Assembly: GCF_937425535.1 (NCBI RefSeq)
Contig: NZ_OW485601.1
Location: 6,183,501 to 6,247,500, forward strand
DNA length: 64,000 nt
From: Rhodovastum atsumiense
GTDB lineage: Bacteria > Pseudomonadota > Alphaproteobacteria > Acetobacterales > Acetobacteraceae
Direction of reading: 5' to 3'
Positions 1,425 to 13,258 of the stretch are shown piece by piece. The notes beneath the pieces were generated by a model that ran no database searches, was not told where the DNA came from, and saw nothing but the letters and a program-made list of their open reading frames with translations. The translations under genes were made by a program, and so were the position numbers. The first letter of the stretch is position 1; each line of letters starts with the position of its first letter.

Positions 1425-2693
1425 GTGACTGCCCGCCTGCTGCGCCCACTCGGCGAGCCGGCCATCGCCTTACTCTGGCTGGCGCTGGCGACCTCGGCGA
1501 TCGGCGACCAGCTCTTTGTCGTGGTGCTGAGCTGGGTGGCTGCCGAGACCCTTGGCACCGCCGCGGGCTACCTCGCGGTGCTGCAGGCGAGCGTGCTGGT
1601 CGCGGTCACCCTGGCCGGCGGTGGCTGGGCCGACCGGCGCCGGCAACCGGCGCTGATGATCGGCGCCGACCTCGCCCGCGCCGCCACGCTGCTGCTGCTG
1701 GTGGCCGCCTGGCTCAACCTGGGCCGCCCGCCCGCCTGGAGCCTGCTGCTGGCCGTGCTGGTGCTCGCGGCGGGGCTCGCGCTGTTCCGCCCGGCGCTGC
1801 AGTCCAGCCTGCCGGCGCTGGTGCGCGACGCGACGTTGCTGCCGGCCACCAATGCGCTGCTCGACACCACCGAGCGCATCGCCCGCCTGCTCGGACCGGG
1901 TCTGGTCGGGCTGGCCGGCGCGCTGCTGTCACTGGCCGATCTGGTCAGCATCGACGCCGCCACCTTCCTGCTCTCGGCCGCCGCGATCGCCGCCATCACC
2001 CGCCTGCGGCCGGTGCCCTTCGTGCCACCACCGCCCGAGACCACCCTGGCCAGCCTGATCCGCGGCTTCCGGGTGGTGCGGCGCCACCGCCTGCTGTGGT
2101 CGGCGCTGACCCTCACCGGCATCGTCAACGGCAGTTGGTACGCGGCCTATTTCCTGGGCGTGCCACTGATGATCGGCGCGGCCGGCGTGACCGGCCCGGG
2201 CGGCAGCGGCATCGCCGCCTACGGGCTGGTGATCTCCGCCTATGGCAGCACCAACCTGCTGGGCACGCTGGTGATCGGCAACCGGCCGATGCCACGCCAT
2301 CCCGAACGGCTGGTCTTCGGCGGCATCTGCCTGGGCGGCGTCGGGGTGACGCTGCTCGGCCTTGGCGGGCTATGGCTGACGCCGTCCTGGCTGCTGCCGG
2401 CCTTCTGCCTCGCCGCCGCCATCGGCGCGGCGGGCGGGCCGATGCAGGACATCATGGTGGCCACCCTGCGCCAGACCGAACTGCCGCGCGCCGACATCGC
2501 CGCCGCGGTGCGCGCCTTCATCCTGGCCAACAATCTCGGCCTGCTGGCGGCACTCGCCGTGGCGCCGGCCCTGTTCGACGCGCTCGGCCGCGCGCCCGCC
2601 GTCCTGCTGTTCGGCATCCTCTATGCCGCGGCCGGTATCACCGGATGGCTGCGGTTCACACGCCGGCCGGACGGGCCTGCAGATCGAGCGTGA
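1425..2693 (+). CDS. MFS transporter (EntS/MFS_3-type exporter)
   Basis: A 422-residue integral membrane protein of the major facilitator superfamily, closest in style to the MFS_3/EntS group. It starts with GTG 8 bases after the flavin reductase stop. About 10-12 hydrophobic segments are visible, with the cytosolic loop motif GGGWADRRRQPALM after the second helix (MFS motif A: G-x-x-x-D-R-x-x-R). It also has the helix 4-5 region LLPATNALLDTTERIARLLGPGLVG, characteristic of this family. The substrate is not predictable. Its last 38 bases overlap the end of the convergent LysR gene. Confidence 0.8.
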   Translation: MTARLLRPLGEPAIALLWLALATSAIGDQLFVVVLSWVAAETLGTAAGYLAVLQASVLVAVTLAGGGWADRRRQPALMIGADLARAATLLLLVAAWLNLGRPPAWSLLLAVLVLAAGLALFRPALQSSLPALVRDATLLPATNALLDTTERIARLLGPGLVGLAGALLSLADLVSIDAATFLLSAAAIAAITRLRPVPFVPPPPETTLASLIRGFRVVRRHRLLWSALTLTGIVNGSWYAAYFLGVPLMIGAAGVTGPGGSGIAAYGLVISAYGSTNLLGTLVIGNRPMPRHPERLVFGGICLGGVGVTLLGLGGLWLTPSWLLPAFCLAAAIGAAGGPMQDIMVATLRQTELPRADIAAAVRAFILANNLGLLAALAVAPALFDALGRAPAVLLFGILYAAAGITGWLRFTRRPDGPADRA

Positions 2694-3582
2694 TGCCAAG
2701 CTCGGTCGCCAACCATCCCGTCAGCACCAGCAATTCCAGCCGGTAGCGCTCGGCGCGCGGGAAGGTGAGGAAATGGCCGACATAGGTCACGTCCTCCGCC
2801 CGTGGCAGCGGCCGCACCAGCCGGCCGCTGGCGAGTTCGCGTTCGGCCAGACGGGTTGATTCCAACGCCACCCCGAGCCCGTCGGCGGCGGCGCTGATGG
2901 AGAGGAAGCTGCGGTCGAAGCGCGGCCCGCGCGGCTCCGGCGCCGCCAGCCCGTTGGCGGCAAACCAGGCGGACCAGCGAACCTGCTTGTTGTCGCTCTC
3001 GATCAGCGTCTGCGCGAACAGGTCGCGCGGCTCGTGGATGCGTCCGGCCAGGGCGGGCGCGCAAAGCGGCGTCACCACTTCCTCGCCCAGCGGCAGCACG
3101 ACGATGCGCGGATGCCGGCTGCGGGCATATTGCTCGGCCCAGGCGGTGCCATAGACGATGTCCACGTCGAACTCGTCATTGAGGAAACGCGAGTAGCTGA
3201 CGCTCGCGGCGATGCGCAGATCGAGCCCCTCGGTGTCGGCGAGCAGCCGCGGCAGGCGCGGCACCAGCCATTGCGCGGCGAAGCTCGGGGCGCTGTGCAG
3301 GCGCAGCAACATGCGGTTGCGGCCGGACACCGCGGCGATGCCACGCTTGAGTTCGTCGAAGCCCTGGCGGACATGACGCAGCAGCGCCTCGCCCTGGCCG
3401 GTCAGTGCGATCTGCCGGCCTTCGCGGAAGAACAGCGTCGTTTTCAGCGACGCCTCCAGGCCACGGATGGCGTGGCTGACCGCGCTCGGGGTGACGCCGA
3501 GCGCATCGGCGGCGGCGCGGAAGGAACCGGTGCGCGCGGCGGCCTCGAAGGCCCGCAGGGCAGTGAGCGGGAGATGCTGCAT
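2656..3582 (-). CDS. LysR-family transcriptional regulator (GcvA-like)
   Basis: A 308-residue LysR-type regulator. The N-terminal winged helix-turn-helix occupies residues 5-64 (LTALRAFEAAARTGSFRAAA, then VTPSAVSHAIRGLE). The substrate-binding domain follows, with GcvA-like features SAPSFAAQWLVPRLPRL and FDVDIVYG. It is divergent from the SDR/transketolase/TRAP operon starting at 3692, the classic arrangement for a LysR activator, so it probably controls that operon in response to a pathway metabolite. The effector is unknown. Its 3' end overlaps the convergent MFS gene by 38 bases. Confidence 0.88.
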   Translation of the reverse strand: MQHLPLTALRAFEAAARTGSFRAAADALGVTPSAVSHAIRGLEASLKTTLFFREGRQIALTGQGEALLRHVRQGFDELKRGIAAVSGRNRMLLRLHSAPSFAAQWLVPRLPRLLADTEGLDLRIAASVSYSRFLNDEFDVDIVYGTAWAEQYARSRHPRIVVLPLGEEVVTPLCAPALAGRIHEPRDLFAQTLIESDNKQVRWSAWFAANGLAAPEPRGPRFDRSFLSISAAADGLGVALESTRLAERELASGRLVRPLPRAEDVTYVGHFLTFPRAERYRLELLVLTGWLATELGITLDLQARPAGV

Positions 3583-3616
3583 GAGGCCGCGAAGGATGAA
3601 CCAGATTCACCTCACG

Positions 3617-3652
3617 GTGCAAATTTCGCGTTTGTGCATCCTCCCCCTGCAC
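3617..3652. promoter_or_regulatory. Candidate LysR operator: three GTGCA half-sites
   Basis: In the 109-bp gap between the divergent LysR gene and the SDR gene, GTGCA occurs at 3617-3621 and 3634-3638. Its reverse complement TGCAC occurs at 3648-3652. The last two form an inverted repeat with a 9-bp spacer and the first is a direct copy 17 bp away. This resembles LysR recognition and activation sites, but the identity is inferred from position and symmetry only. Confidence 0.45.
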
Positions 3653-3691
3653 ACCCAACAATGTCGCGAACCACAGGTTCAGGAGGAAACA

Positions 3692-4441
3692 ATGTTACTG
3701 ACGGACCGGGTTGCGGTGATTTCAGGAGCCGCGAGTCCGCGTGGCATCGGTCGTGCCACCGCCCGTCTGTTCGCCGAGCACGGCGCCCGCGTGGTGATCC
3801 TTGACCTCGACGAGGCCGCCTCCCGCACGGCGGCCGAGGAACTCGGCGCCGGCCATCTCGGCTTCGCCTGCGACGTGAGCAATCCCGAAAGCTGCCGCCA
3901 GGCCGCCGCGCGCGTGCTGGAAGCCACCGGCAAGGTGGATGTGCTGATCAACAACGCCGGCATCAGCCAGCCGGTGAAGTTCCAGGAGATCAGCCCGTCC
4001 GACTGGCAGCGCATCATGGCGGTCAATCTCGACGGCGTGCTGTATCTGAGCCAGGCCTTCGTGCCGCACATGCGGGCCCGGCGCCAGGGCTCGATCGCCT
4101 GCATGTCTTCGGTGTCGGCGCAGCGTGGCGGCGGCATTTTCGGCGGGCCGCACTACTCCGCCGCGAAGGCGGGCGTGCTGGGGCTGGCCAAGGCAATGGC
4201 GCGCGAGCTTGGCCCCGACAATATCCGGGTGAACTGCGTCACCCCGGGGCTGATCCAGACCGACATCACCGGCGGCAAGCTGACCCCGGAGATGAAAGCC
4301 AGCATCCTGACGGGGATTCCGCTCGCCCGCCTCGGCGAGGCCCGCGACGTGGCCGGGGTGTATCTGTTCCTCGCCAGCGATCTCTCCGCCTATGTCACCG
4401 GTGCCGTGATCGACGTGAACGGCGGCATGCTTATTCACTGA
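3692..4441 (+). CDS. SDR-family oxidoreductase, first gene of the catabolic operon
   Basis: A 249-residue classical short-chain dehydrogenase/reductase. NAD(P)-binding motif SGAASPRGIG is at residues 11-20, NNAG near 90, and the catalytic YSAAK has Tyr155 and Lys159, with the partner serine in MSSVSA about a dozen residues before. The C-terminal end VTGAVIDVNGG is typical. Such enzymes oxidise a secondary alcohol of a sugar, polyol or sugar acid. The start at 3692 is preferred because AGGAGG lies at 3681-3686; the longer upstream frame runs into the LysR promoter region. In this cluster it may oxidise the imported substrate to a keto compound (inference). Confidence 0.88.
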   Translation: MLLTDRVAVISGAASPRGIGRATARLFAEHGARVVILDLDEAASRTAAEELGAGHLGFACDVSNPESCRQAAARVLEATGKVDVLINNAGISQPVKFQEISPSDWQRIMAVNLDGVLYLSQAFVPHMRARRQGSIACMSSVSAQRGGGIFGGPHYSAAKAGVLGLAKAMARELGPDNIRVNCVTPGLIQTDITGGKLTPEMKASILTGIPLARLGEARDVAGVYLFLASDLSAYVTGAVIDVNGGMLIH

Positions 4442-4489
4442 CGCGATCCCGCGCGGCGCAGTGCGTCGCACGTCCAGGGAGATAAGAAT

Positions 4490-5338
4490 TTGCCATCCGA
4501 ATTGTTACGGCCGAACCAACCCGGCCTGGATGAGCGCGCCTGGCGCATCCGCCGCAACGCGCTGCGCATGGGCGAAGTCCAGGGCCAGGGCTACATCGCC
4601 CAGGCGCTGGGCATCGCCGACGTGCTGGCGGTCGCCTATTTCCACGCCCTGACCTATCGTCCGGAAGACCCGCACTGGGAAGGCCGCGACCGCTTCCTGC
4701 TTTCGATCGGCCACTACGCCATCGCCCTCTACGCCGCGCTGATTGAAGCAGGAATCATTCCCGAATCTGAACTTGAGACCTATGGCGTTGATGACAGCCG
4801 CCTGCCGATGTCGGGCATGGCGAGCTACACGCCGGGCATGGAAATCAGCGGCGGCTCGCTCGGCCAGGGCCTGGGCATCGCCGTCGGCATGGGCCTCGGC
4901 CTCAAGCGCAAGAAGTCCGGCGCCTTCGTCTACAACCTGATGTCGGACGGCGAACTGGGCGAGGGCGCGACCTGGGAAGCGGCAATGTCGGCCGCGCACT
5001 GGAAGCTCGATAACCTGATCTGCCTGGTGGATTTCAACAACCAGCAGGCCGACGGACCCTCAACTCAGATGCTGTGCAGCGAGCCGTTGCAGCCGAAATG
5101 GGAAGCCTTCGGCTGGCACGCGCAACGCGTCGACGGCAACGACATCAAAGCCCTGGTCGCCGCCTTCGACACGGCGCGCACCCTCGCCGAGCCACGGCCC
5201 CGCGTGATCATCTGCGACACCCGCATGGCCATGGGCGTGCCCTTCCTGCAGGCCCGCGAGCGTAACCACTTCCTGCGGGTCGAGGCCGATGAATGGCAAC
5301 AGGCCCTCGCCGTCCTGTCGGAAGGGAGGCACGCATGA
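4490..5338 (+). CDS. Transketolase, N-terminal (ThDP pyrophosphate) subunit
   Basis: A 282-residue protein matching the N-terminal half of transketolase (split form). His75 in SIGHYAIALYA corresponds to the NGHG histidine, and SGGSLGQGLG follows near 120. The ThDP/Mg motif runs from SDGELGEG (Asp153) to LVDFNNQQADGPS. It starts with TTG at 4490 behind AGGGAGA. The segment where ordinary transketolases have GHPE reads LPMSGMASYTPG, so a substrate-contacting histidine seems to be missing. Its stop overlaps the start of the C-terminal subunit gene (ATGA). Together the two subunits should transfer a two-carbon ketol unit between a ketose-type donor and an aldehyde acceptor. Confidence 0.88.
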   Translation: MPSELLRPNQPGLDERAWRIRRNALRMGEVQGQGYIAQALGIADVLAVAYFHALTYRPEDPHWEGRDRFLLSIGHYAIALYAALIEAGIIPESELETYGVDDSRLPMSGMASYTPGMEISGGSLGQGLGIAVGMGLGLKRKKSGAFVYNLMSDGELGEGATWEAAMSAAHWKLDNLICLVDFNNQQADGPSTQMLCSEPLQPKWEAFGWHAQRVDGNDIKALVAAFDTARTLAEPRPRVIICDTRMAMGVPFLQARERNHFLRVEADEWQQALAVLSEGRHA

Positions 5339-6324
5339 GCGCCGTGAAACCTCGTCTCACCACATCGGCCATGATCGCCTCGATCGCGGCCGAGGGACAG
5401 AAGACGCAAGCGGCACCGTTCGGTCATGCGCTCTCGGCGCTGGCGGAAACCCGGCCGGACATCGTCGGCATGACCGCCGACCTGGGCAAATACACCGACC
5501 TGCACATCTTTGCCCGCGCCCATCCGGACCGCTTCTATCAAATGGGCATGGCCGAGCAGTTGCTGTTCGGCGCCGCTGCCGGCATGGCACGCGAGGGATT
5601 CACCCCCTTCGCCACCACCTACGCCGTGTTCGCCGCACGCCGTGCCTATGACTTCATCTGCCTCGGCATCAGCGAGGAAAAGCTGAACGTCAAGGTGGTC
5701 TGCGCCCTGCCCGGCCTGACCACCGGCTACGGCCCGAGCCACCAGGCCACCGAGGACATCGCCATCTTCCGCGGCATGCCCGGCATCGTCGTGGTCGATC
5801 CCTGCGATGCGCTCGATATTTCGCAGGCGGTTCCGGCGATCGCCGCGCATGACGGGCCGGTCTACATGCGCCTGCTGCGCGGCAACGTGCCGCTGGTGCT
5901 GGACGAGTACGACTACCGGTTCGAACTCGGCAAGGCGGCGCTGCTGCGCGACGGACCGGATGCGCTGATCATCGCTTCCGGGCTGATGACGATGCGCGCG
6001 CTGGAAACCGCCGAGGCCCTGCGCAAGGACCGCATCGACGTGGCGGTCATGCACGTGCCCACGATCAAGCCGCTCGACGAGGCAGCCATCAACGCCGCCG
6101 CCGCGCGCACCGGCCGCCCGGTGATCGTGGCCGAGAACCACAGCCGGATCGGCGGGCTTGGCGAGGCGGTGGCGGGCAGCCTGCTGCGCGCGGGGCTGGC
6201 GCCACGCTTCCGCCAGATCGCCCTGCCGGACGCGTTCCTCGACGCCGGCGCGCTGCCGACGTTGCACGATCGCTACGGTATCTCGACAGAGGCGATGGTG
6301 CAGACCATTCGCGGCTGGCTGTGA
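5335..6324 (+). CDS. Transketolase, C-terminal (pyrimidine-binding) subunit
   Basis: A 329-residue partner of the preceding gene. It has the pyrimidine-binding domain with the ThDP-activating glutamate (Glu74 in MGMAEQ), the acceptor-side loop LTTGYGPSHQATED, and a C-terminal transketolase domain (DALIIASGLMTMRALETAE, VIVAENHSRIGGLGE). The start at 5335 is chosen because it overlaps the upstream stop (ATGA) and follows GGGAGG; an in-frame ATG at 5293 lies inside the upstream gene. Split transketolases often have specialised substrates rather than the pentose phosphate pathway. Confidence 0.87.
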   Translation: MSAVKPRLTTSAMIASIAAEGQKTQAAPFGHALSALAETRPDIVGMTADLGKYTDLHIFARAHPDRFYQMGMAEQLLFGAAAGMAREGFTPFATTYAVFAARRAYDFICLGISEEKLNVKVVCALPGLTTGYGPSHQATEDIAIFRGMPGIVVVDPCDALDISQAVPAIAAHDGPVYMRLLRGNVPLVLDEYDYRFELGKAALLRDGPDALIIASGLMTMRALETAEALRKDRIDVAVMHVPTIKPLDEAAINAAAARTGRPVIVAENHSRIGGLGEAVAGSLLRAGLAPRFRQIALPDAFLDAGALPTLHDRYGISTEAMVQTIRGWL

Positions 6325-7208
6325 CCGGCGCGCCGCGCACGGTCGGCTTCGTCGGGCTTGGCGCCATGGGACTTCCCATGGCGCAGGCCCTGCTGGCCGG
6401 TGGCTTCACCGTGCATGGCTGGGACTTGCGCGCCGACTCGCGCGAAGCCCTGGCCGCTTCCGGCGGCCTGCCCGCTGAATCCGCCGCCGCGGCAGCGACG
6501 GGCGCCGACGCGCTGGTGCTGATGGTGGTCAACGCCGCTCAGGCCGAAACCGTCCTGTTCGACGAGGGCGCCCTGGCGGCGCTGCCGCCGCAGGGTATCG
6601 TGGTGCTGATGGCGACCTGCCCGCCCGCCGCCGTCGTCGCCATCGCCGAACGGGTGCAGGCAAGCGGCCGTGGCTTCGTCGATGCACCGGTTTCCGGCGG
6701 CGTCGCCGGGGCACGCGCGGCGAAGCTGACCATCATGGCGGCCGGTTCCGATGACAGCGTCGCGGCGGTGCGCCCGCTGTTCGCCGCCCTTGGCGACCGG
6801 ATCTTCCATGTCGGCCCGACCCCGGGCCAGGGCGCGACGGTGAAGACCGCCAACCAGTTGCTCTGCGGCGTGCACATCGCGGTCGCCGCCGAGGCCTTCG
6901 CACTGGCCGAGAAAATCGGGGTCGATCGCGGATTGCTGCTGGAGGTGATGAGCGGCTCCTCCGCGGCAAGCTGGATGCTGCGCGATCGCGGGCCGCGCAT
7001 GCTGCAGGAGGCGCCGGAGGTCACCAGCGCCATCGACATCTTCGTCAAGGATCTCGGCATCGTGCTGCAGGCCGGGCGCGATGCCAGGGCGGCGCTGCCG
7101 CTGACGGCGGCGGCGCACCAGTTGTTCCTGGCCAGTTCCGGCCGGGGCGACGGCACGGCGGACGACAGCCAGGTGATCCGGAGTTATCGCGTCCTGAATG
7201 GAACCTGA
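6321..7208 (+). CDS. NAD(P)-dependent beta-hydroxyacid dehydrogenase, LtnD-like
   Basis: A 295-residue member of the 3-hydroxyisobutyrate dehydrogenase family. It has the Rossmann motif VGFVGLGAMGLPMA at the N-terminus, the substrate motif DAPVSGGVAGAR near residues 116-127, and the catalytic lysine region GATVKTANQLL with the lysine about residue 175. LVLMVVNAAQAETVLF, CGVHIA and SAIDIFVKDLGIV resemble L-threonate dehydrogenase (LtnD) as I recall it, rather than plain HIBADH. LtnD oxidises C2 of a four-carbon sugar acid. The GTG start overlaps the transketolase stop (GTGA). The usual partners OtnK, OtnC and OtnI are absent. Tartronate semialdehyde reductase is the main alternative. Confidence 0.75.
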   Translation: MTGAPRTVGFVGLGAMGLPMAQALLAGGFTVHGWDLRADSREALAASGGLPAESAAAAATGADALVLMVVNAAQAETVLFDEGALAALPPQGIVVLMATCPPAAVVAIAERVQASGRGFVDAPVSGGVAGARAAKLTIMAAGSDDSVAAVRPLFAALGDRIFHVGPTPGQGATVKTANQLLCGVHIAVAAEAFALAEKIGVDRGLLLEVMSGSSAASWMLRDRGPRMLQEAPEVTSAIDIFVKDLGIVLQAGRDARAALPLTAAAHQLFLASSGRGDGTADDSQVIRSYRVLNGT

Positions 7209-7266
7209 CTCGCCCCCCGCCGGCCCAATCGGGTAACAACACGGATAACAAGACGGGAGTGAAATC

Positions 7267-8310
7267 ATGACCAATAATCAAATGAATTTGGGAACATTCC
7301 GCCACGGACCAACCCGTCGCGGCCTGATCGCCGCCGGCACCGCCCTGCCGCTGGTCGGCATCCTGACCCGTCGCGCCGCCGCCGCCGAGTTCACCTACAA
7401 GTTCGCTACCGGCCAGGACCCCACCCATCCCTGCAACATCCGCGCGGCCGAAGCGCTCGACCGCATCCGCGAGGCCAGCAGCGGACGGCTGGACATCAAG
7501 CTGTTCCCGGCCAACCAGCTTGGCTCGGACACCGACCTGCTCTCGCAGGTGCGCAGCGGCGGCGTGGAATTCTTCAATCTCGCCACCTCGATCCTGGCGA
7601 CCCTGGTGCCGGTGAGCGGCATCGTCAACACCGGCTTCGCCTTCCATGACTACGACACGGTGTGGCGGGCCATGGATGGCGCGCTCGGCCAGCACATCCG
7701 CGCGCAGATCAACAAGGTCGGGCTGGTGTCCGTCTGCAAGATCACCGACAACGGCTTCCGCCAGATCACCACCTCGACCGGCCCGATCAACACCCCGGCC
7801 GATCTCGCCGGCTTCAAGCTGCGGGTGCCGCCCGCACCGATGCTGACCTCGTTGTTCAAGGCGCTCGGGGCCGGGCCGGCGCCGATCAATTTCAATGAAG
7901 TTTATTCCTCCTTGCAGACCAAGGTGGTCTCGGGCCAGGAGAACCCGCTGGCGATCATCGCCACCACCCGCCTCTATGAAGTGCAGAAATACTGTAGCCT
8001 GACCGGGCATGTCTGGGATGGCTACTGCATCCTCGGCAACCGCCGCGCCTGGCAACGCCTGCCCGAGGACCTGCGCGCCCTGGTCACCCGCGAGCTGGAC
8101 CGTTCCGTCATGGACCAGCGCGCCGACATCGCCCGGCTCAGCGTGTCGCTGCGCCAGGATCTGGCCACCAAGGGGCTGGTCTTCAACGAGGTGAACCAGG
8201 CCCCGTTCCGGGCGGCACTGGCCGGAACCAGCTTCTACGCCGACTGGAAGGCAAAATATGGCCCCGAAGCCTGGGAGCTGCTTGAGCAGGCCACCGGCAA
8301 ATTGGGGTAA
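7267..8310 (+). CDS. TRAP transporter substrate-binding protein, DctP family
   Basis: A 347-residue periplasmic solute receptor of a tripartite ATP-independent transporter. The N-terminus carries a twin-arginine-like signal (TRRGLIAAGTALPLVG) followed by an AAAAE cleavage region. The mature part begins with FTYKFATGQDPTHPCNIRA. The conserved binding elements LPANQLGSDTDLLSQVRSG-like and LAGFKLRVPPAP are present. DctP proteins usually bind organic or sugar acids through a conserved arginine. It precedes the permease by 5 bases. The start ATG follows GGGAGTG. The ligand is not predictable; context suggests a short sugar acid. Confidence 0.88.
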   Translation: MTNNQMNLGTFRHGPTRRGLIAAGTALPLVGILTRRAAAAEFTYKFATGQDPTHPCNIRAAEALDRIREASSGRLDIKLFPANQLGSDTDLLSQVRSGGVEFFNLATSILATLVPVSGIVNTGFAFHDYDTVWRAMDGALGQHIRAQINKVGLVSVCKITDNGFRQITTSTGPINTPADLAGFKLRVPPAPMLTSLFKALGAGPAPINFNEVYSSLQTKVVSGQENPLAIIATTRLYEVQKYCSLTGHVWDGYCILGNRRAWQRLPEDLRALVTRELDRSVMDQRADIARLSVSLRQDLATKGLVFNEVNQAPFRAALAGTSFYADWKAKYGPEAWELLEQATGKLG

Positions 8311-8315
8311 GCGGC

Positions 8316-10196
8316 ATGTCGGTTCATGACGCTCATGCCATGGAACGGCAACAGCCGCTGCTCAACGCAGCGCAATGGGTGGCCCCGGTGGAGGCCGCCC
8401 TCGCCCGCCTCGTCGAGATCCCGGCCGCCCTGCTGGTGGTGGCCGAGATCGTGGTCCTGCTGGCCGGGGTGATCTGGCGCTACGTGCTGCATTCGCCGCT
8501 GATCTGGTCGGACGAACTGGCGAGCACGCTGTTCCTGTGGCTCGCCATGCTCGGCTCGGTGGTGGCGCTGCAGCGCAACGAGCACATGCGCATGACCGCG
8601 CTGGTGGGCAAGGCGTCGCCGCAAACGCGCGCCTTCCTCGAAGTGGTCGCGGTCGCGGTGCCGGTGCTGTTCCTGTCCCTGATGGTGATGCCGGGCGTGG
8701 AATTCGCCATCGAGGAGGACTTCATCACCACGCCGGCGCTGGACATCTCCGGCGCCTGGCACGCCGCCGCCTTCCCGGTCGGCTCGGTGCTGATGCTGGT
8801 GGTGGCGCTGCTGCGCCTCGCCCGCACCGGCGGATGGCAGGCGCTGGCGGGCGGGATCGGGCTGGTGGCCGGCATCGCCGCGATCTTCGTCGCCGCCGCG
8901 CCGGTGCTGCACGAGCTTGGCAACATCAACCTGTTGATCTTCTTCGTGCTGCTGGTCGGGACCATGGTCCTGGCCGGCGTGCCGATCGCCTTCGCCTTCG
9001 GCATCGCCACGCTCGGCTATATCGGCCTGACCACCAACGTGCCCGACATCGTGCTGGTCGGGCGCATGAACGAGGGCATGGCGCATCTGATCCTGCTCGC
9101 CGTGCCGCTGTTCGTCGTGCTCGGCCTGCTGATGGAGATGACCGGCATCGCCCGCACCATGGTGGCGTTCCTGGTCAGCCTGCTCGGCCATGTGCGGGGC
9201 GGGCTCTATTACGTGCTGGTCGGCGCCATGTACCTGGTCTCGGGCATCTCCGGCTCGAAGGCAGCGGACATGGCCGCGATCGCGCCGGTGCTGTTCCCGG
9301 AAATGCAAAAGCGTGGCGAGCCAGAGGGCGAATTGCTGGCCCTGCTCTCGGCCACCGGCGCGCAGACCGAGACGATCCCGCCCAGCCTGGTGCTGATCAC
9401 CATCGGCTCGGTGACCGGCGTCTCGATCGCCGCCCTGTTCACCGGCGGCCTGCTGCCGGGGCTGGTGCTCGGTCTGGTGCTCTGCCTGGTCGTGCGCTGG
9501 CGCCTGCGCGGCAAGGTGACACCGGGCACGGGACTGCGTGCGTCCTGGGGCACGGTGGGAAAGTGCTTCGTGATCGCCCTTCCCGGCCTCGCCTTGCCCT
9601 TCGTCATCCGCTGGGCGGTGATCAGCGGCGCCACCACGGCGACCGAGGTCTCCACCATCGGCATCGCCTATGCCGTCATCGTCGGCGTGCTGGTCTATCG
9701 CAGCTTCGACCTGAAACGGCTGATGCCGATGCTGGTGGAAACGGCATCGCTCTCCGGCGCCATCCTGCTCATCATCGGGGCCGCCACGGCGATGTCCTGG
9801 GCCCTGACCCAGTCGGGCTTCTCGCAGTCCCTGGCAGCGGCGATGGCAGCCTTGCCGGGTGGGCAGGCCACCTTCCTCGCGGTGTCCATCCTGGCCTTCA
9901 TCGTGCTGGGCAGCGTGCTGGAAGGCATTCCCGCCATCGTGCTGTTCGGGCCGCTGCTGTTCCCGATCGCGCGCCAGATGGGGGTGCACGAGGTGCACTA
10001 CGCCATGGTGGTGATCCTCTCGATGGGCGTGGGCCTGTTCGCACCGCCCTTCGGCGTGGGCTACTACTCCGCCTGCGCCGTCAGCCGCATCCATCCGGAT
10101 GCCGGGCTGAAGCCGATCCTGCCCTACCTGCTGGCCTTGATCATCGGCGTCGCGGTGATCGCCGCGATCCCCTGGATATCGATCGGCTTCCTCTGA
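8316..10196 (+). CDS. TRAP transporter permease, fused DctQ-DctM
   Basis: A 626-residue membrane protein joining the small (DctQ, residues about 30-195) and large (DctM, about 200-626) TRAP permease subunits. DctQ part: four helices with YVLHSPLIWSDELASTLFLW, a typical signature. DctM part: LVGTMVLAGVPIAFAFGIATLG, SGSKAADMAAIAPVLFPEM and LGSVLEGIPAIVLFGPLLFP, covering the two transmembrane repeats. It uses the sodium gradient to import the ligand delivered by DctP. A second in-frame ATG lies at 8340. Confidence 0.9.
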   Translation: MSVHDAHAMERQQPLLNAAQWVAPVEAALARLVEIPAALLVVAEIVVLLAGVIWRYVLHSPLIWSDELASTLFLWLAMLGSVVALQRNEHMRMTALVGKASPQTRAFLEVVAVAVPVLFLSLMVMPGVEFAIEEDFITTPALDISGAWHAAAFPVGSVLMLVVALLRLARTGGWQALAGGIGLVAGIAAIFVAAAPVLHELGNINLLIFFVLLVGTMVLAGVPIAFAFGIATLGYIGLTTNVPDIVLVGRMNEGMAHLILLAVPLFVVLGLLMEMTGIARTMVAFLVSLLGHVRGGLYYVLVGAMYLVSGISGSKAADMAAIAPVLFPEMQKRGEPEGELLALLSATGAQTETIPPSLVLITIGSVTGVSIAALFTGGLLPGLVLGLVLCLVVRWRLRGKVTPGTGLRASWGTVGKCFVIALPGLALPFVIRWAVISGATTATEVSTIGIAYAVIVGVLVYRSFDLKRLMPMLVETASLSGAILLIIGAATAMSWALTQSGFSQSLAAAMAALPGGQATFLAVSILAFIVLGSVLEGIPAIVLFGPLLFPIARQMGVHEVHYAMVVILSMGVGLFAPPFGVGYYSACAVSRIHPDAGLKPILPYLLALIIGVAVIAAIPWISIGFL

Positions 10197-10296
10197 TCAG
10201 CGCGGGGCGGTTCCGGCCGTCCCGCCTCTCTCCCCCGCTTTTCCTCGTTGCCTGCCATCAGCGGCCCGCGACCGGGCCGTCGTGGAGAGTATTGTC

Positions 10297-12270
10297 ATGT
10301 CCTCCCCTGCCCCGCAGAAGCTGGCACACGCCATCCGCTTCCTTGCCCTGGACGCGATCGAGCACGCCGGCGACGGCCATCCCGGCGCCCCGCTCGGCTG
10401 CGCCGAAATCACCACGGCGCTGTTCACGCGTCACCTGAAATTCCATGCCGCCGACCCGATGTGGTTCGACCGCGACCGCTTCGTGCTGTCGAACGGCCAC
10501 GGCTCCATGCTGATCTACGCCTTGCTGCACCTGACCGGGTACGAACACATCAGCCTCGACCAGATCCGCACCTTCCGCCGCCTTGGCTCACATTGCGCCG
10601 GCCATCCCGAATACGATCCCGCCAGCGGCATCGAAGTCACCACCGGGCCACTCGGCCAGGGCATCGCCAATGCCGCCGGCATGGCGGTCGCCGAGGCGTT
10701 CCTGCGCAACTGGCTCGGCGAGGACATGGTCAACCATCGCACCTACGCGCTGGTGGGGGATGGCTGCCTGCAGGAAGGCGTCGGCCAGGAGATCATCGCG
10801 CTCGCCGGGCATCTGCGGCTTGGTCATCTCACCTTCCTCTGGGACGACAACCGCATGACCGACGATGGTGGCATCACCATCGCCCAGAGCGAGGACATGT
10901 GCGCGCGCTTCCGCATCGCCGGCTGGCACGTGCAGGACGTGGACGGGCACGATGTCGCCGCGGTCGACGCGGCGCTGAGTCTGGCGGCGCTGGATCCACG
11001 CCCCTCGATGATTGCCTGCCGCACCATGATCGGCCGTGGCCTACCACGGCTACAGGGCCAGCGCGGCGCCCATGGCGGCCGCGTCTTCGCCGAAGACCTG
11101 ATCGCAGCGCGTGAATCCCTGGACTGGCCATACCCGGCCTTCACCATCCCCGATGACGTTCTTTCGGTCTGGCGTGCCGCCGGGCGCCGCGGCCTGCCCG
11201 CCTACGAAGCCTGGCATGCCCGCCTCGCGGCCCTGTCGCCGGAGCGCCGTCGCCTGCTCGATCGCCTGCGCGAAGGCCGGCTGCCGGAAGGCTGGGAGAA
11301 ACCGCTACGGAACTGGCGGCGGGACATCGCGCCTGCCAAGGCCCAGGGCGGCATCAACAGTTCCGCCGACATCGTCGAAATACTGGCAACGACGATTCCC
11401 GAACTGGTTTCCGGCGCGCCCGACCTGGAAGGGCCGACGCAGCACAAGCGACACCTGACATCCTTCAGCGCCACCGACCAGGGCGGCCGCTACGTGCATT
11501 ACGGTGTGCGCGAGCATGCCATGGGCTCGATGGTAAACGGCATGGCCGCACATGGCGGGGTGGTGCCGCTTGGCGTGACCTATCTGGCGTTCTCGGATTA
11601 CGAGCGGCCGGCGCTGCGCATGGCAGCGCTGATGGGGCTGCCCTCGCTGTTCGTGTTCTCGCACGATTCCATCGGCATCGGCCGCAACGGCCCGACCCAC
11701 CAGCCGGTCGAGATCGTGGCCTCGCTGCGGGCCATGCCCAACATGCTGGTCTTCCGCCCGGCCGATGCGGTGGAAGCCGCCGAATGCTGGGAAGCGGCCC
11801 TGTCCAACCGCTCCGGTCCCTCGACGCTGGTGTTCTCCCGCCAGGTGCTGCCGCCGGTGCGCGAGGATGGCACCGGCGAAAATCGCGCCGCCCGCGGCGC
11901 CTATGTGCTGGCCGAAGCCAGTTCCAGGCGCCGCGCCACCATCCTCGCCACCGGATCGGAAGTCGCCCTCGCCTTGGCCGCCCGCCAGATGCTGGAAGCG
12001 GAGGGCATCCCCACCGCCGTTGTCTCCATGCCCTGCTGGGAACTGTTCGAACGGCAGGAGCCCGCCTATCGTGACCAGGTGATCGACCGCACCACCGTGC
12101 GGGTCGCGGTGGAGGCAGCGGTGCGCCAAGGCTGGGAACGCTGGATCGGCGAGGATGGCGGCTTCGTCGGCATGAGCAGCTTCGGTGCCTCCGGACCCGA
12201 GGCAGACCTCTTCGCCCATTTCGGCATCACCCCGGAACGGGTCGCCGGCGAAGTGCGTCGCCGCCTGTAA
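10297..12270 (+). CDS. Full-length transketolase with altered substrate pocket
   Basis: A 657-residue transketolase with all three domains. ThDP site: GDGCLQEG (Asp155) and WDDN; catalytic Glu406 in YGVREHAM; His456 and His468 in HDSIGIGRNGPTHQ; Arg515 in FSRQVL. Compared by eye with E. coli TktA, the phosphate-binding Arg358 is Ile353, Ser385 is Pro380, and Asp469, which reads the substrate hydroxyl, is Asn464. This suggests non-phosphorylated or unusual substrates. The ATG at 10297 is preferred over the GTG at 10282 because GGAGAG lies 7 bases before it. It follows the TRAP genes and precedes a hydroxyacid dehydrogenase in the same operon. Confidence 0.88.
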   Translation: MSSPAPQKLAHAIRFLALDAIEHAGDGHPGAPLGCAEITTALFTRHLKFHAADPMWFDRDRFVLSNGHGSMLIYALLHLTGYEHISLDQIRTFRRLGSHCAGHPEYDPASGIEVTTGPLGQGIANAAGMAVAEAFLRNWLGEDMVNHRTYALVGDGCLQEGVGQEIIALAGHLRLGHLTFLWDDNRMTDDGGITIAQSEDMCARFRIAGWHVQDVDGHDVAAVDAALSLAALDPRPSMIACRTMIGRGLPRLQGQRGAHGGRVFAEDLIAARESLDWPYPAFTIPDDVLSVWRAAGRRGLPAYEAWHARLAALSPERRRLLDRLREGRLPEGWEKPLRNWRRDIAPAKAQGGINSSADIVEILATTIPELVSGAPDLEGPTQHKRHLTSFSATDQGGRYVHYGVREHAMGSMVNGMAAHGGVVPLGVTYLAFSDYERPALRMAALMGLPSLFVFSHDSIGIGRNGPTHQPVEIVASLRAMPNMLVFRPADAVEAAECWEAALSNRSGPSTLVFSRQVLPPVREDGTGENRAARGAYVLAEASSRRRATILATGSEVALALAARQMLEAEGIPTAVVSMPCWELFERQEPAYRDQVIDRTTVRVAVEAAVRQGWERWIGEDGGFVGMSSFGASGPEADLFAHFGITPERVAGEVRRRL

Positions 12271-12292
12271 CATTCCACTCCGGAGGCCCCTT

Positions 12293-13258
12293 ATGCACAA
12301 GATCGTCTTCCTCGACCGCGCCACGCTGGGTCCGCGCGTGGTGCTGCGCCGCCCCGGCTTCGACCACACGCTGGAGGAGTACCAACACACCACCGCCGCC
12401 CAGGCCGCCGAACGCCTCGCCGGGGCCAGCATCGCCATCATCAACAAGGTGTCCCTGACCGCCGACACGCTGGCGCAACTGCCGGACCTGAAGCTGATCG
12501 CGGTGGCCGCCACCGGCACCGACTGCGTCGACAAGGCGTACTGCCAGGCTCACGGCATCGCCGTCGCCAACATCCGCGGCTACGCGCTGCGCACCGTACC
12601 CGAACACACCTTCGCACTGATGCTGGCCTTGCGGCGCAACATCATCCCGTTCCGCGACGACACCCTCGCCGGCGAATGGCAGCGCGCCGGCCAGTTCTGC
12701 TTCTTCAACCACCCGATCAACGACCTCGGCGGCGCCCGCCTGGGCATCATCGGCGAGGGCGTGCTCGGCCAGCGCGTCGCCGAAATCGCCCGCGTCTTCG
12801 GCATGATCCCCCTGTTCGCCGCCCATAAGGGCGTCAGCGGCCTGGGGCCGCTCTATACGCCCTGGGACGAGGTCCTGGAGACCAGCGACATCATCACCCT
12901 GCACTGCCCGCTGACGCCGCAGACACGCAACCTGATCGGCATGACCGAATTCCGCCAGATGAAGCGCCGGCCATTGCTGATCAATACCGCGCGCGGCGGA
13001 CTGGTCGTGGAGGAAGACCTCGAACACGCCCTCGACGAGGGCCTGATCAGCGGCGCCGGCATCGATGTGACCTCGCCCGAACCACCGCCGGCCGACAGCG
13101 TCATCATGCGACTGGCACGGCGGCCCAACGTGATCCTGACGCCACATGTCGCCTGGGCCAGCGACGAAGCCCAGCAAACACTCGCCGACCAATTGATCGA
13201 TAATATCGAGAACTTTGTCGCCGGCGCGCCCAGCAACCTGGTACTGGGATCGTACTGA
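12293..13258 (+). CDS. D-2-hydroxyacid dehydrogenase, hydroxypyruvate/glyoxylate reductase-like
   Basis: A 321-residue D-isomer-specific 2-hydroxyacid dehydrogenase. NAD-binding motif LGIIGEGVLGQRVAE lies near residue 150. The catalytic triad residues sit in LLINTARGGLV (Arg), DVTSPEPP (Glu) and TPHVAWAS (His). The start KIVFLDRATLG and the segments LKLIAVAATGTD and YALRTVPEH resemble HprA glycerate dehydrogenases of methylotrophs, which reduce hydroxypyruvate and glyoxylate. ATG at 12293 follows CGGAGG at 12281-12286; an earlier in-frame ATG lies inside the transketolase gene. It is the last gene of the operon and could drain hydroxypyruvate or glyoxylate to glycerate or glycolate (inference). 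Confidence 0.82.
   Translation: MHKIVFLDRATLGPRVVLRRPGFDHTLEEYQHTTAAQAAERLAGASIAIINKVSLTADTLAQLPDLKLIAVAATGTDCVDKAYCQAHGIAVANIRGYALRTVPEHTFALMLALRRNIIPFRDDTLAGEWQRAGQFCFFNHPINDLGGARLGIIGEGVLGQRVAEIARVFGMIPLFAAHKGVSGLGPLYTPWDEVLETSDIITLHCPLTPQTRNLIGMTEFRQMKRRPLLINTARGGLVVEEDLEHALDEGLISGAGIDVTSPEPPPADSVIMRLARRPNVILTPHVAWASDEAQQTLADQLIDNIENFVAGAPSNLVLGSY

What the first reader, a model, noticed from the sequence alone, without database searches (positions are those of the whole stretch)
3583..13258. Kinase-free catabolic cluster built on two transketolases, a TRAP importer and LtnD/HprA-like dehydrogenases
The operon contains an SDR, a split transketolase, an LtnD-like dehydrogenase, TRAP genes, a second full-length transketolase and an HprA-like reductase, but no kinase, aldolase, isomerase or decarboxylase. 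Known L-threonate pathways use LtnD with a kinase (OtnK) and an aldolase-type decarboxylase (OtnC). 3-Oxo-tetronate has the HOCH2-CO-CHOH- head that transketolases cleave. Cleavage would give glyoxylate and a ThDP-bound C2 unit that can go to a sugar phosphate. The HprA-like enzyme could reduce glyoxylate or hydroxypyruvate. This would be an ATP-free tetronate route. The gene content is seen; the chemistry is inferred.
Basis: partly seen in the sequence, partly recalled or inferred. Interest (0 to 1): 0.8.

Follow-up and report, generated by a model that had tools for sequence, protein, structure and literature searches.

The report
Sugar-acid operon with two altered transketolases
This is a bacterial gene cluster, related versions of which occur in many soil and plant bacteria, that probably breaks down an unidentified small sugar acid by cutting it with unusual transketolase enzymes instead of first adding a phosphate; the substrate itself is not known.

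Summary
The gene content is real: divergent lysR, then SDR, split transketolase (tkN/tkC), LtnD-like dehydrogenase, DctP, fused DctQM, a full transketolase and an HprA-like dehydrogenase. It recurs widely: of 97 loci with tkC at 60% identity or more, 97 have tkN, 90 the SDR, 30 a DctP; an MFS, one scanned and D-galactonate-family-like, stands in 54 of 86 sequences. The core is regulator, SDR, split transketolase and anion importer. Both transketolases are specialised. The split one has Y and S at E. coli H26 and H100 in 96 of 96, and no R358 in 98 of 98. The full one has R358 and E468-D469 replaced in 9 of 9 aligned cluster copies; the host's three other transketolases keep them. I favour a C3 oxo-acid product (tartronate semialdehyde or hydroxypyruvate) reduced to glycerate. 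The substrate is unknown; ten paper searches found no characterised case.

The parts
2656..3582 (-). LysR regulator (best NCBIfam match GcvA, 227 bits, below its cut-off of 288), divergent from the operon
   Evidence: a LysR at 30% identity or more within 9.5 kb of tkC in 83 of 97 loci
3692..4441 (+). SDR dehydrogenase; proposed entry step, oxidising a carbinol next to the terminal CH2OH of a sugar acid
   Evidence: in 90 of 97 loci; best solved relative 7krk, deposited as a 3-oxoacyl-ACP reductase
4490..5338 (+). tkN, N-terminal subunit of split transketolase; Y35 and S108 replace E. coli H26 and H100
   Evidence: RBS and TTG start
5335..6324 (+). tkC, C-terminal subunit of split transketolase; keeps E74 (E411) and H136 (H473), lacks R358 and H461
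6321..7208 (+). LtnD-like beta-hydroxyacid dehydrogenase; proposed reductase of the released oxo-acid
   Evidence: 37% identical to E. coli LtnD, 32-33% to GarR and GlxR
7267..8310 (+). DctP TRAP solute-binding protein
8316..10196 (+). fused DctQM TRAP permease
10297..12270 (+). full-length transketolase, cluster-type paralogue (R358 and E468-D469 replaced)
12293..13258 (+). HprA-like D-2-hydroxyacid dehydrogenase; proposed hydroxypyruvate (or glyoxylate) reductase
   Evidence: hprA lies beside a glycerate 2-kinase-like gene in L015, L115, L116

Best explanation
A catabolic operon for a small non-phosphorylated sugar acid (probably five carbons). The TRAP importer brings the acid in. The SDR oxidises the carbinol next to the terminal CH2OH to a ketone. 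The split transketolase, whose donor and phosphate site is remodelled, takes the two-carbon ketol off this keto-acid and hands it to an aldose phosphate. What remains is a C3 oxo-acid (tartronate semialdehyde or hydroxypyruvate). The LtnD-like and/or HprA-like enzyme reduces it to D-glycerate, and a glycerate 2-kinase encoded elsewhere in this genome phosphorylates that. The full-length transketolase, also specialised, serves the same pathway, perhaps by recycling the acceptor or by acting on a second acid intermediate. Shown: gene content, co-conservation, residue changes, presence of GK-II family and lack of Gcl over cut-off. Inferred: every chemical step, carbon number, order and stereochemistry.
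For: SDR + tkN + tkC conserved with either TRAP (30 of 97) or an MFS cluster (54 of 86 sequences), one member of which best matches the D-galactonate transporter family (335 bits, below its cut-off 395). ThDP and catalytic residues kept (E411, H473 in 98 of 98; D155, N185, H66, H261 in 96 of 96) while H26 is Y and H100 is S in 96 of 96 and R358 is lost in 98 of 98. Literature on E. coli TktA: H461 is associated with substrate phosphate, H26 can contact substrate, H26Y reverses enantioselectivity (PMC3657141, passages); H100L together with D469T in a stabilised variant allows pyruvate, a donor without the ketol hydroxyl (PMC10787763, passages). LtnD-like or HprA in 24 of 97 loci; HprA ends the operon in L115, L116 and L131, where Microvirga loci such as L012 have LtnD-like. 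Glycerate 2-kinase-like gene beside hprA in 3 of 97 (L015 and L115 scanned: DUF4147 + MOFRL; L116 by 92% identity). Gcl over cut-off in 5 of 14 cluster genomes, not the host; GK-II family in 14 of 14; hydroxypyruvate isomerase-like protein in 14 of 14 at 1e-75 or better against 100 of 289 alphaproteobacteria. The 14 are of 16 genomes known here to carry tkC at 60% or more; G036 and G233 were not given to these searches.
Against: No enzyme assayed and no ligand known. 62 of 97 loci have none of DctP, LtnD-like, HprA, TK or GK, so those may be accessory, and the C3 inference rests on few loci. Host and 8 others of 14 cluster genomes have malate synthase G, so glyoxylate is usable. G389, of the host's genus, has Gcl over cut-off. 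The closest DctP match in the PDB (4oan, 60%) proved to be from another context, so it gives no ligand.
Confidence: 0.45

Rival explanations
1. One reading: a C4 acid (tetronate) is oxidised to 3-oxo-tetronate, here by the SDR rather than LtnD, and the transketolase cuts it to glyoxylate plus C2; LtnD-like or HprA-like enzymes reduce glyoxylate or act after it.
For: 3-oxo-tetronate is the smallest acid with the required head (chemistry, reasoned). The second type of DctP in these clusters (L085, L012) is closest to 4p9k/4pak and 4p47, with 4pdh and 4pdd in the top seven; I recall D-erythronate or pantoate ligands for 4p9k, 4pak, 4pdh and 4pdd, but no call showed the ligand part of the titles. 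Host has malate synthase G.
Against: Glycerate 2-kinase-like gene beside hprA in 3 of 97 loci; no Gcl over cut-off in the host or in 8 others of 14 cluster genomes tested. LtnD-like in only 21 of 97.
Confidence: 0.2
2. Branched donor: isoapionate or a relative is oxidised to 3-oxo-isoapionate, HOOC-C(OH)(CH2OH)-CO-CH2OH (structure recalled), and the split transketolase cuts it directly to hydroxypyruvate plus C2; HprA and glycerate kinase follow.
For: Gives hydroxypyruvate without an isomerase, fitting clusters with hprA and GK but no LtnD-like gene (L115, L116; hprA without GK in L131). An unusual C3 environment would fit H26Y. In Bosea L070 tkN/tkC lie near OiaX-like and OiaK-like genes.
Against: OiaX/OiaK scores are below cut-off (449 and 589 vs 700 each). 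No other cluster locus shows an OtnK-type kinase among its called genes (blastp from E. coli OtnK). Does not explain the LtnD-like gene.
Confidence: 0.13
3. The transketolases are ordinary pentose-phosphate enzymes that replenish acceptors, and the catabolic chemistry is done by the dehydrogenases.
For: ThDP-binding and catalytic residues are kept; R520 is kept in 98 of 98 tkC and 8 of 9 full TKs; the full TK keeps H26 and H100 in 9 of 9 and H461 in 8 of 9.
Against: Invariant loss of phosphate and donor residues in the split enzyme, and of R358 and E468-D469 in the cluster full-length TK, while three other TKs in the same genome keep them. In 385 alphaproteobacteria the cluster-type full TK at 60% or more was found in 2, both with the split TK (at most three candidates per genome were scored, so this is a lower bound).
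Confidence: 0.1

Closest known systems
L-threonate/D-erythronate pathways (LtnD, OtnI, OtnK, OtnC; E. coli ygbJ-ygbM)
   Same: LtnD-like dehydrogenase beside a transporter for an anion
   Different: No OtnI, OtnK or OtnC found among the called genes of the cluster loci except an OtnK-type kinase in L070; transketolases and an SDR instead
Split-chain transketolase of Carboxydothermus hydrogenoformans (6yak/6yaj)
   Same: Two-chain transketolase; best PDB match of both subunits
   Different: The window's tkN has Y and S where 6yak has H at the H26 and H100 positions
Transketolase-dependent sulfoglycolysis and apulose-4-phosphate transketolase (recalled, not searched)
   Same: Catabolic use of transketolases outside the pentose phosphate pathway (recalled)
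   Different: Sequences not compared; none of the family matches in the window's cluster names sulfo-sugar or apiose enzymes as its best match
D-apionate catabolism (ApnO/OiaK/OiaX; pathway recalled, OiaK and OiaX families in NCBIfam)
   Same: OiaX-like and OiaK-like genes near the same split transketolase in L070
   Different: Not among the window cluster's family matches; no OtnK-type kinase in the other cluster loci by blastp

Membership tests
Transketolase (ThDP enzyme) | Transketolase N, pyrimidine and C domains | tested here: met
   Pfam PF00456, PF02779, PF02780 across tkN/tkC and in the full TK
Transketolase (ThDP enzyme) | Catalytic glutamate and ThDP/Mg residues (E411, D155, N185; roles recalled) | tested here: met
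   98 of 98 (E411) and 96 of 96 (D155, N185); the window's own protein is present twice in each set, once as L005
Pentose-phosphate transketolase (equivalog TIGR00232) | Residues R358, H461, H26, H100 of E. coli TktA and the curated score 682.25 | tested here: not met
   Split TK: all four lost in every close sequence. Full TK: R358 lost in 9 of 9, H26 and H100 kept, H461 kept in 8 of 9. NCBIfam: full TK 680.2, tkN 144.1, tkC 61.2
L-threonate (LtnD/OtnI/OtnK/OtnC) pathway | 3-oxo-tetronate kinase, decarboxylase and isomerase | tested here: not met
   E. coli OtnK, OtnC and OtnI as blastp queries on called genes of the cluster loci: the only gene with one of them as best match is an OtnK-type gene in L070
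LtnD equivalog NF043037 | Curated score 350 bits | tested here: not met
   292 bits
2-hydroxyacid dehydrogenase NF005387 | Curated score 492 bits | tested here: not met
   329 bits; Pfam domains PF00389 and PF02826 are met
TRAP importer | DctP, DctQ and DctM domains | tested here: met
   PF03480, PF04290, PF06808
Sulfo-transketolase pathway | Activity on 6-deoxy-6-sulfofructose | not tested
   Recalled only; no reference sequence was compared

The most novel reading that the evidence does not exclude
The split transketolase founds a distinct enzyme family (H26Y/H100S type) that cleaves non-phosphorylated sugar acids with inverted or altered donor recognition, possibly even transferring a ketol lacking its hydroxyl, as H100L with D469T allows in engineered E. 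coli TktA; a second, separately remodelled transketolase works in the same pathway. It is a kinase-independent sugar-acid route spread over Pseudomonas, Burkholderiales and Alphaproteobacteria.
Probability: 0.35. Interest if true: 0.78.

Novelty: new variant of a known kind. Interest (0 to 1): 0.55.

Why it matters
The cluster core is common in bacteria of soil and plants (titles), so its unknown substrate is likely to be an abundant small acid whose fate is not mapped. Nature also seems to have fixed changes at H26 and H100, positions that enzyme engineers altered in E. coli TktA to change stereoselectivity and donor choice. If the chemistry holds, it gives a transketolase that works on acids and a testable route that avoids phosphorylating the substrate.

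Tried and rejected
Ligand transfer from the PDB: the window's DctP matches 4oan at 60% (RPB_2686 of R. palustris HaA2; ligand recalled as 2-acetolactate, not shown by any search; a review lists 2-acetolactate among TRAP ligands, PMC5812351, passages). The genome holding that protein at 100% (G527) has no split transketolase (best tkC match 28%), and the gene lies near a protein resembling an acyl-CoA synthetase by eye. The 84% copy in G361 also has an AMP-binding enzyme beside it. I dropped this inference, which had first led me to favour the branched-acid model.

Hyi/GK/Gcl profile as proof of a C3 product: suggestive but confounded, kept as partial evidence.

Structure model of tkC: mean pLDDT 54.6, not used. 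The DctP model was good, but Foldseek titles were cut before the ligand.

D469, H461, S385: alignments disagree. In the split TK, ungapped against E. coli by eye a tyrosine stands at D469, while MAFFT and the pairwise alignment open gaps; I claim only that no aspartate is there. H461 is L (MAFFT) or A (ungapped by eye): lost either way. S385 in the full TK aligns to P or A and T, so I do not count it. D469Y also reverses enantioselectivity in E. coli TktA, but I do not lean on it.

Literature: searches listed no paper that I could recognise as being on this operon; 26 (split transketolase + TRAP transporter + catabolism), 28, 54 (apionate + transketolase) and 62 returned none. The library lacks most subscription papers, and the TRAP ligand paper that I tried was not held.

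Results against a strict link: G247 has a full transketolase with a similar altered loop (GSN) but no tkC match above 31% and no cluster gene near it. G361 has two split-transketolase loci. L011's full TK is broken into several frames and was left out of the residue count.
Full report
Observation. The window encodes, in order, a divergent LysR regulator (2656-3582) and on the + strand an SDR, tkN, tkC, an LtnD-like dehydrogenase, DctP, fused DctQM, a full transketolase and an HprA-like dehydrogenase, ending at 13258; a DNA polymerase III alpha-like gene (by eye) follows on the other strand. tkN/tkC and tkC/LtnD overlap by 4 bases, and the other gaps are 5 to 100 bases, consistent with one operon. 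The nearest named species by tkC is Rhodopila globiformis (83%), an Acetobacteraceae; that the host is in this family is inferred.

Conservation. Searches of 385 and 60 genomes gave 20 more regions that I fetched; five weaker matches of 37-42% (L101-L105) were not fetched as regions. Of 101 sequences examined (80 + 20 + window), 97 have tkC at 60% or more; the four dropped, L123-L126, are 50-55%. A few genomes give two loci (for example L117 and L118). In the 97: tkN 97, SDR 90, LysR 83, DctP 30, DctQM 27, LtnD-like 21, full TK 9, HprA 7, glycerate 2-kinase-like 3 (identity thresholds differ per gene, within 9.5 kb; contig ends lower these counts). tkN and tkC lie on different frames in 97 of 97 (where the host is counted as L005). 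LtnD-like or HprA is in 24, both in 4; 19 of the 30 DctP loci have one against 5 of 67 without DctP; all nine TK loci have DctP. An MFS of one sequence cluster is in 54 of 86 sequences; one member scores 335 bits to the D-galactonate transporter family (cut-off 395). So the core is LysR, SDR, tkN, tkC and an anion importer; LtnD-like, HprA, TK and GK are lineage additions.

Active sites. Against E. coli TktA, the close tkN sequences (96, the window's own protein also present as L005) have Y at H26, A at S68 and S at H100 in 96 of 96; the close tkC sequences (98, window likewise twice) lack R at R358 and H at H461 in 98 of 98 and keep E411, H473 and R520 in 98 of 98. L123-L126 share Y26 and S100; the second split pairs in L008, L010 and L070 keep H and H. 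Y26 agrees with the HMMER alignments to 6yak and to human transketolase. In E. coli TktA, H26Y gives 88% (R) where wild type gives 58% (S) with propionaldehyde (PMC3657141, passages); H461 is tied to substrate phosphate; H100L with D469T in a stabilised variant lets pyruvate serve as donor (PMC10787763, passages). These are analogies to a distant enzyme.

The full transketolase is a separate specialised paralogue. In nine distinct sequences beside the cluster (window, L006, L015, L017, L084, L114, L127, L130, and L121 at 50% identity) R358 is I or W, E468 is R, K or S, and D469 is N; the three other host transketolases and TktA keep R, E, D. L127 has D at H461 and L084 has H at R520. L011, also with a cluster TK, was left out because its gene is in pieces. 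Of 385 alphaproteobacteria only the host and G355 gave a match at 60% or more, and both have the split enzyme (at most three candidates per genome scored). G247 has a similar GSN loop without the cluster, which counts against a strict link.

Chemistry (inferred). A transketolase needs HOCH2-CO-CHOH-R or a near relative. From a sugar acid the SDR can make it by oxidising next to the terminal CH2OH. A C4 acid then yields glyoxylate, a linear C5 acid tartronate semialdehyde, a branched C5 acid hydroxypyruvate. A glycerate 2-kinase-like gene beside hprA (L015 and L115 scanned, DUF4147 + MOFRL; L116 by similarity) points to glycerate as the end product. The host has no Gcl over cut-off (best 337 of 711 bits), but has GK-II, a Hyi-like protein slightly under cut-off (339 of 353) and malate synthase G. 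These searches covered 14 of the 16 genomes known here to carry tkC at 60% or more. Gcl is over cut-off in 5 of 14, among them G389 of the host's genus. The Hyi-like protein is in 14 of 14 against 100 of 289 class members at 1e-75, confounded by kinship and genome size. I favour C5 with a C3 product, keep C4, and keep the branched C5.

Importer. Two DctP types serve the cluster (61-78% and about 28-35% identical to the window's). Neither has a ligand that I could verify; the 4oan lead was rejected.

Verdict. The operon is real, its core widespread, and it is unassigned as far as my ten paper searches reached.

Noticed in passing
L070:1397-5150 and 8254-11842: Bosea locus with two tandem split transketolase pairs (the second 35-37%) near OiaX-like and OiaK-like genes and a PGDH_C-domain protein.
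   Followed up: partly
L123:398-9573; L124:6783-14927: A 50-55% sister split transketolase with the same Y and S residues lies with an enolase-superfamily (sugar-acid dehydratase-like) gene and a TRAP importer.
   Followed up: partly
G000:C1:2733001-2751000 (L163): The host has a second DctP/DctQM pair (53-57%) near a DUF1537-type kinase and a DeoC/LacD aldolase.
   Followed up: no
L008, L010: MAGs labelled Desulfobacterales carry tkC at 80% to the window, as high as the Burkholderiales MAG L009; possible mis-binning or transfer.
   Followed up: no
L081:11033-11986: An alpha/beta-hydrolase-like gene (by eye) follows tkC; its sequence cluster is in 17 loci, perhaps releasing the acid from an ester or lactone.
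   Followed up: no
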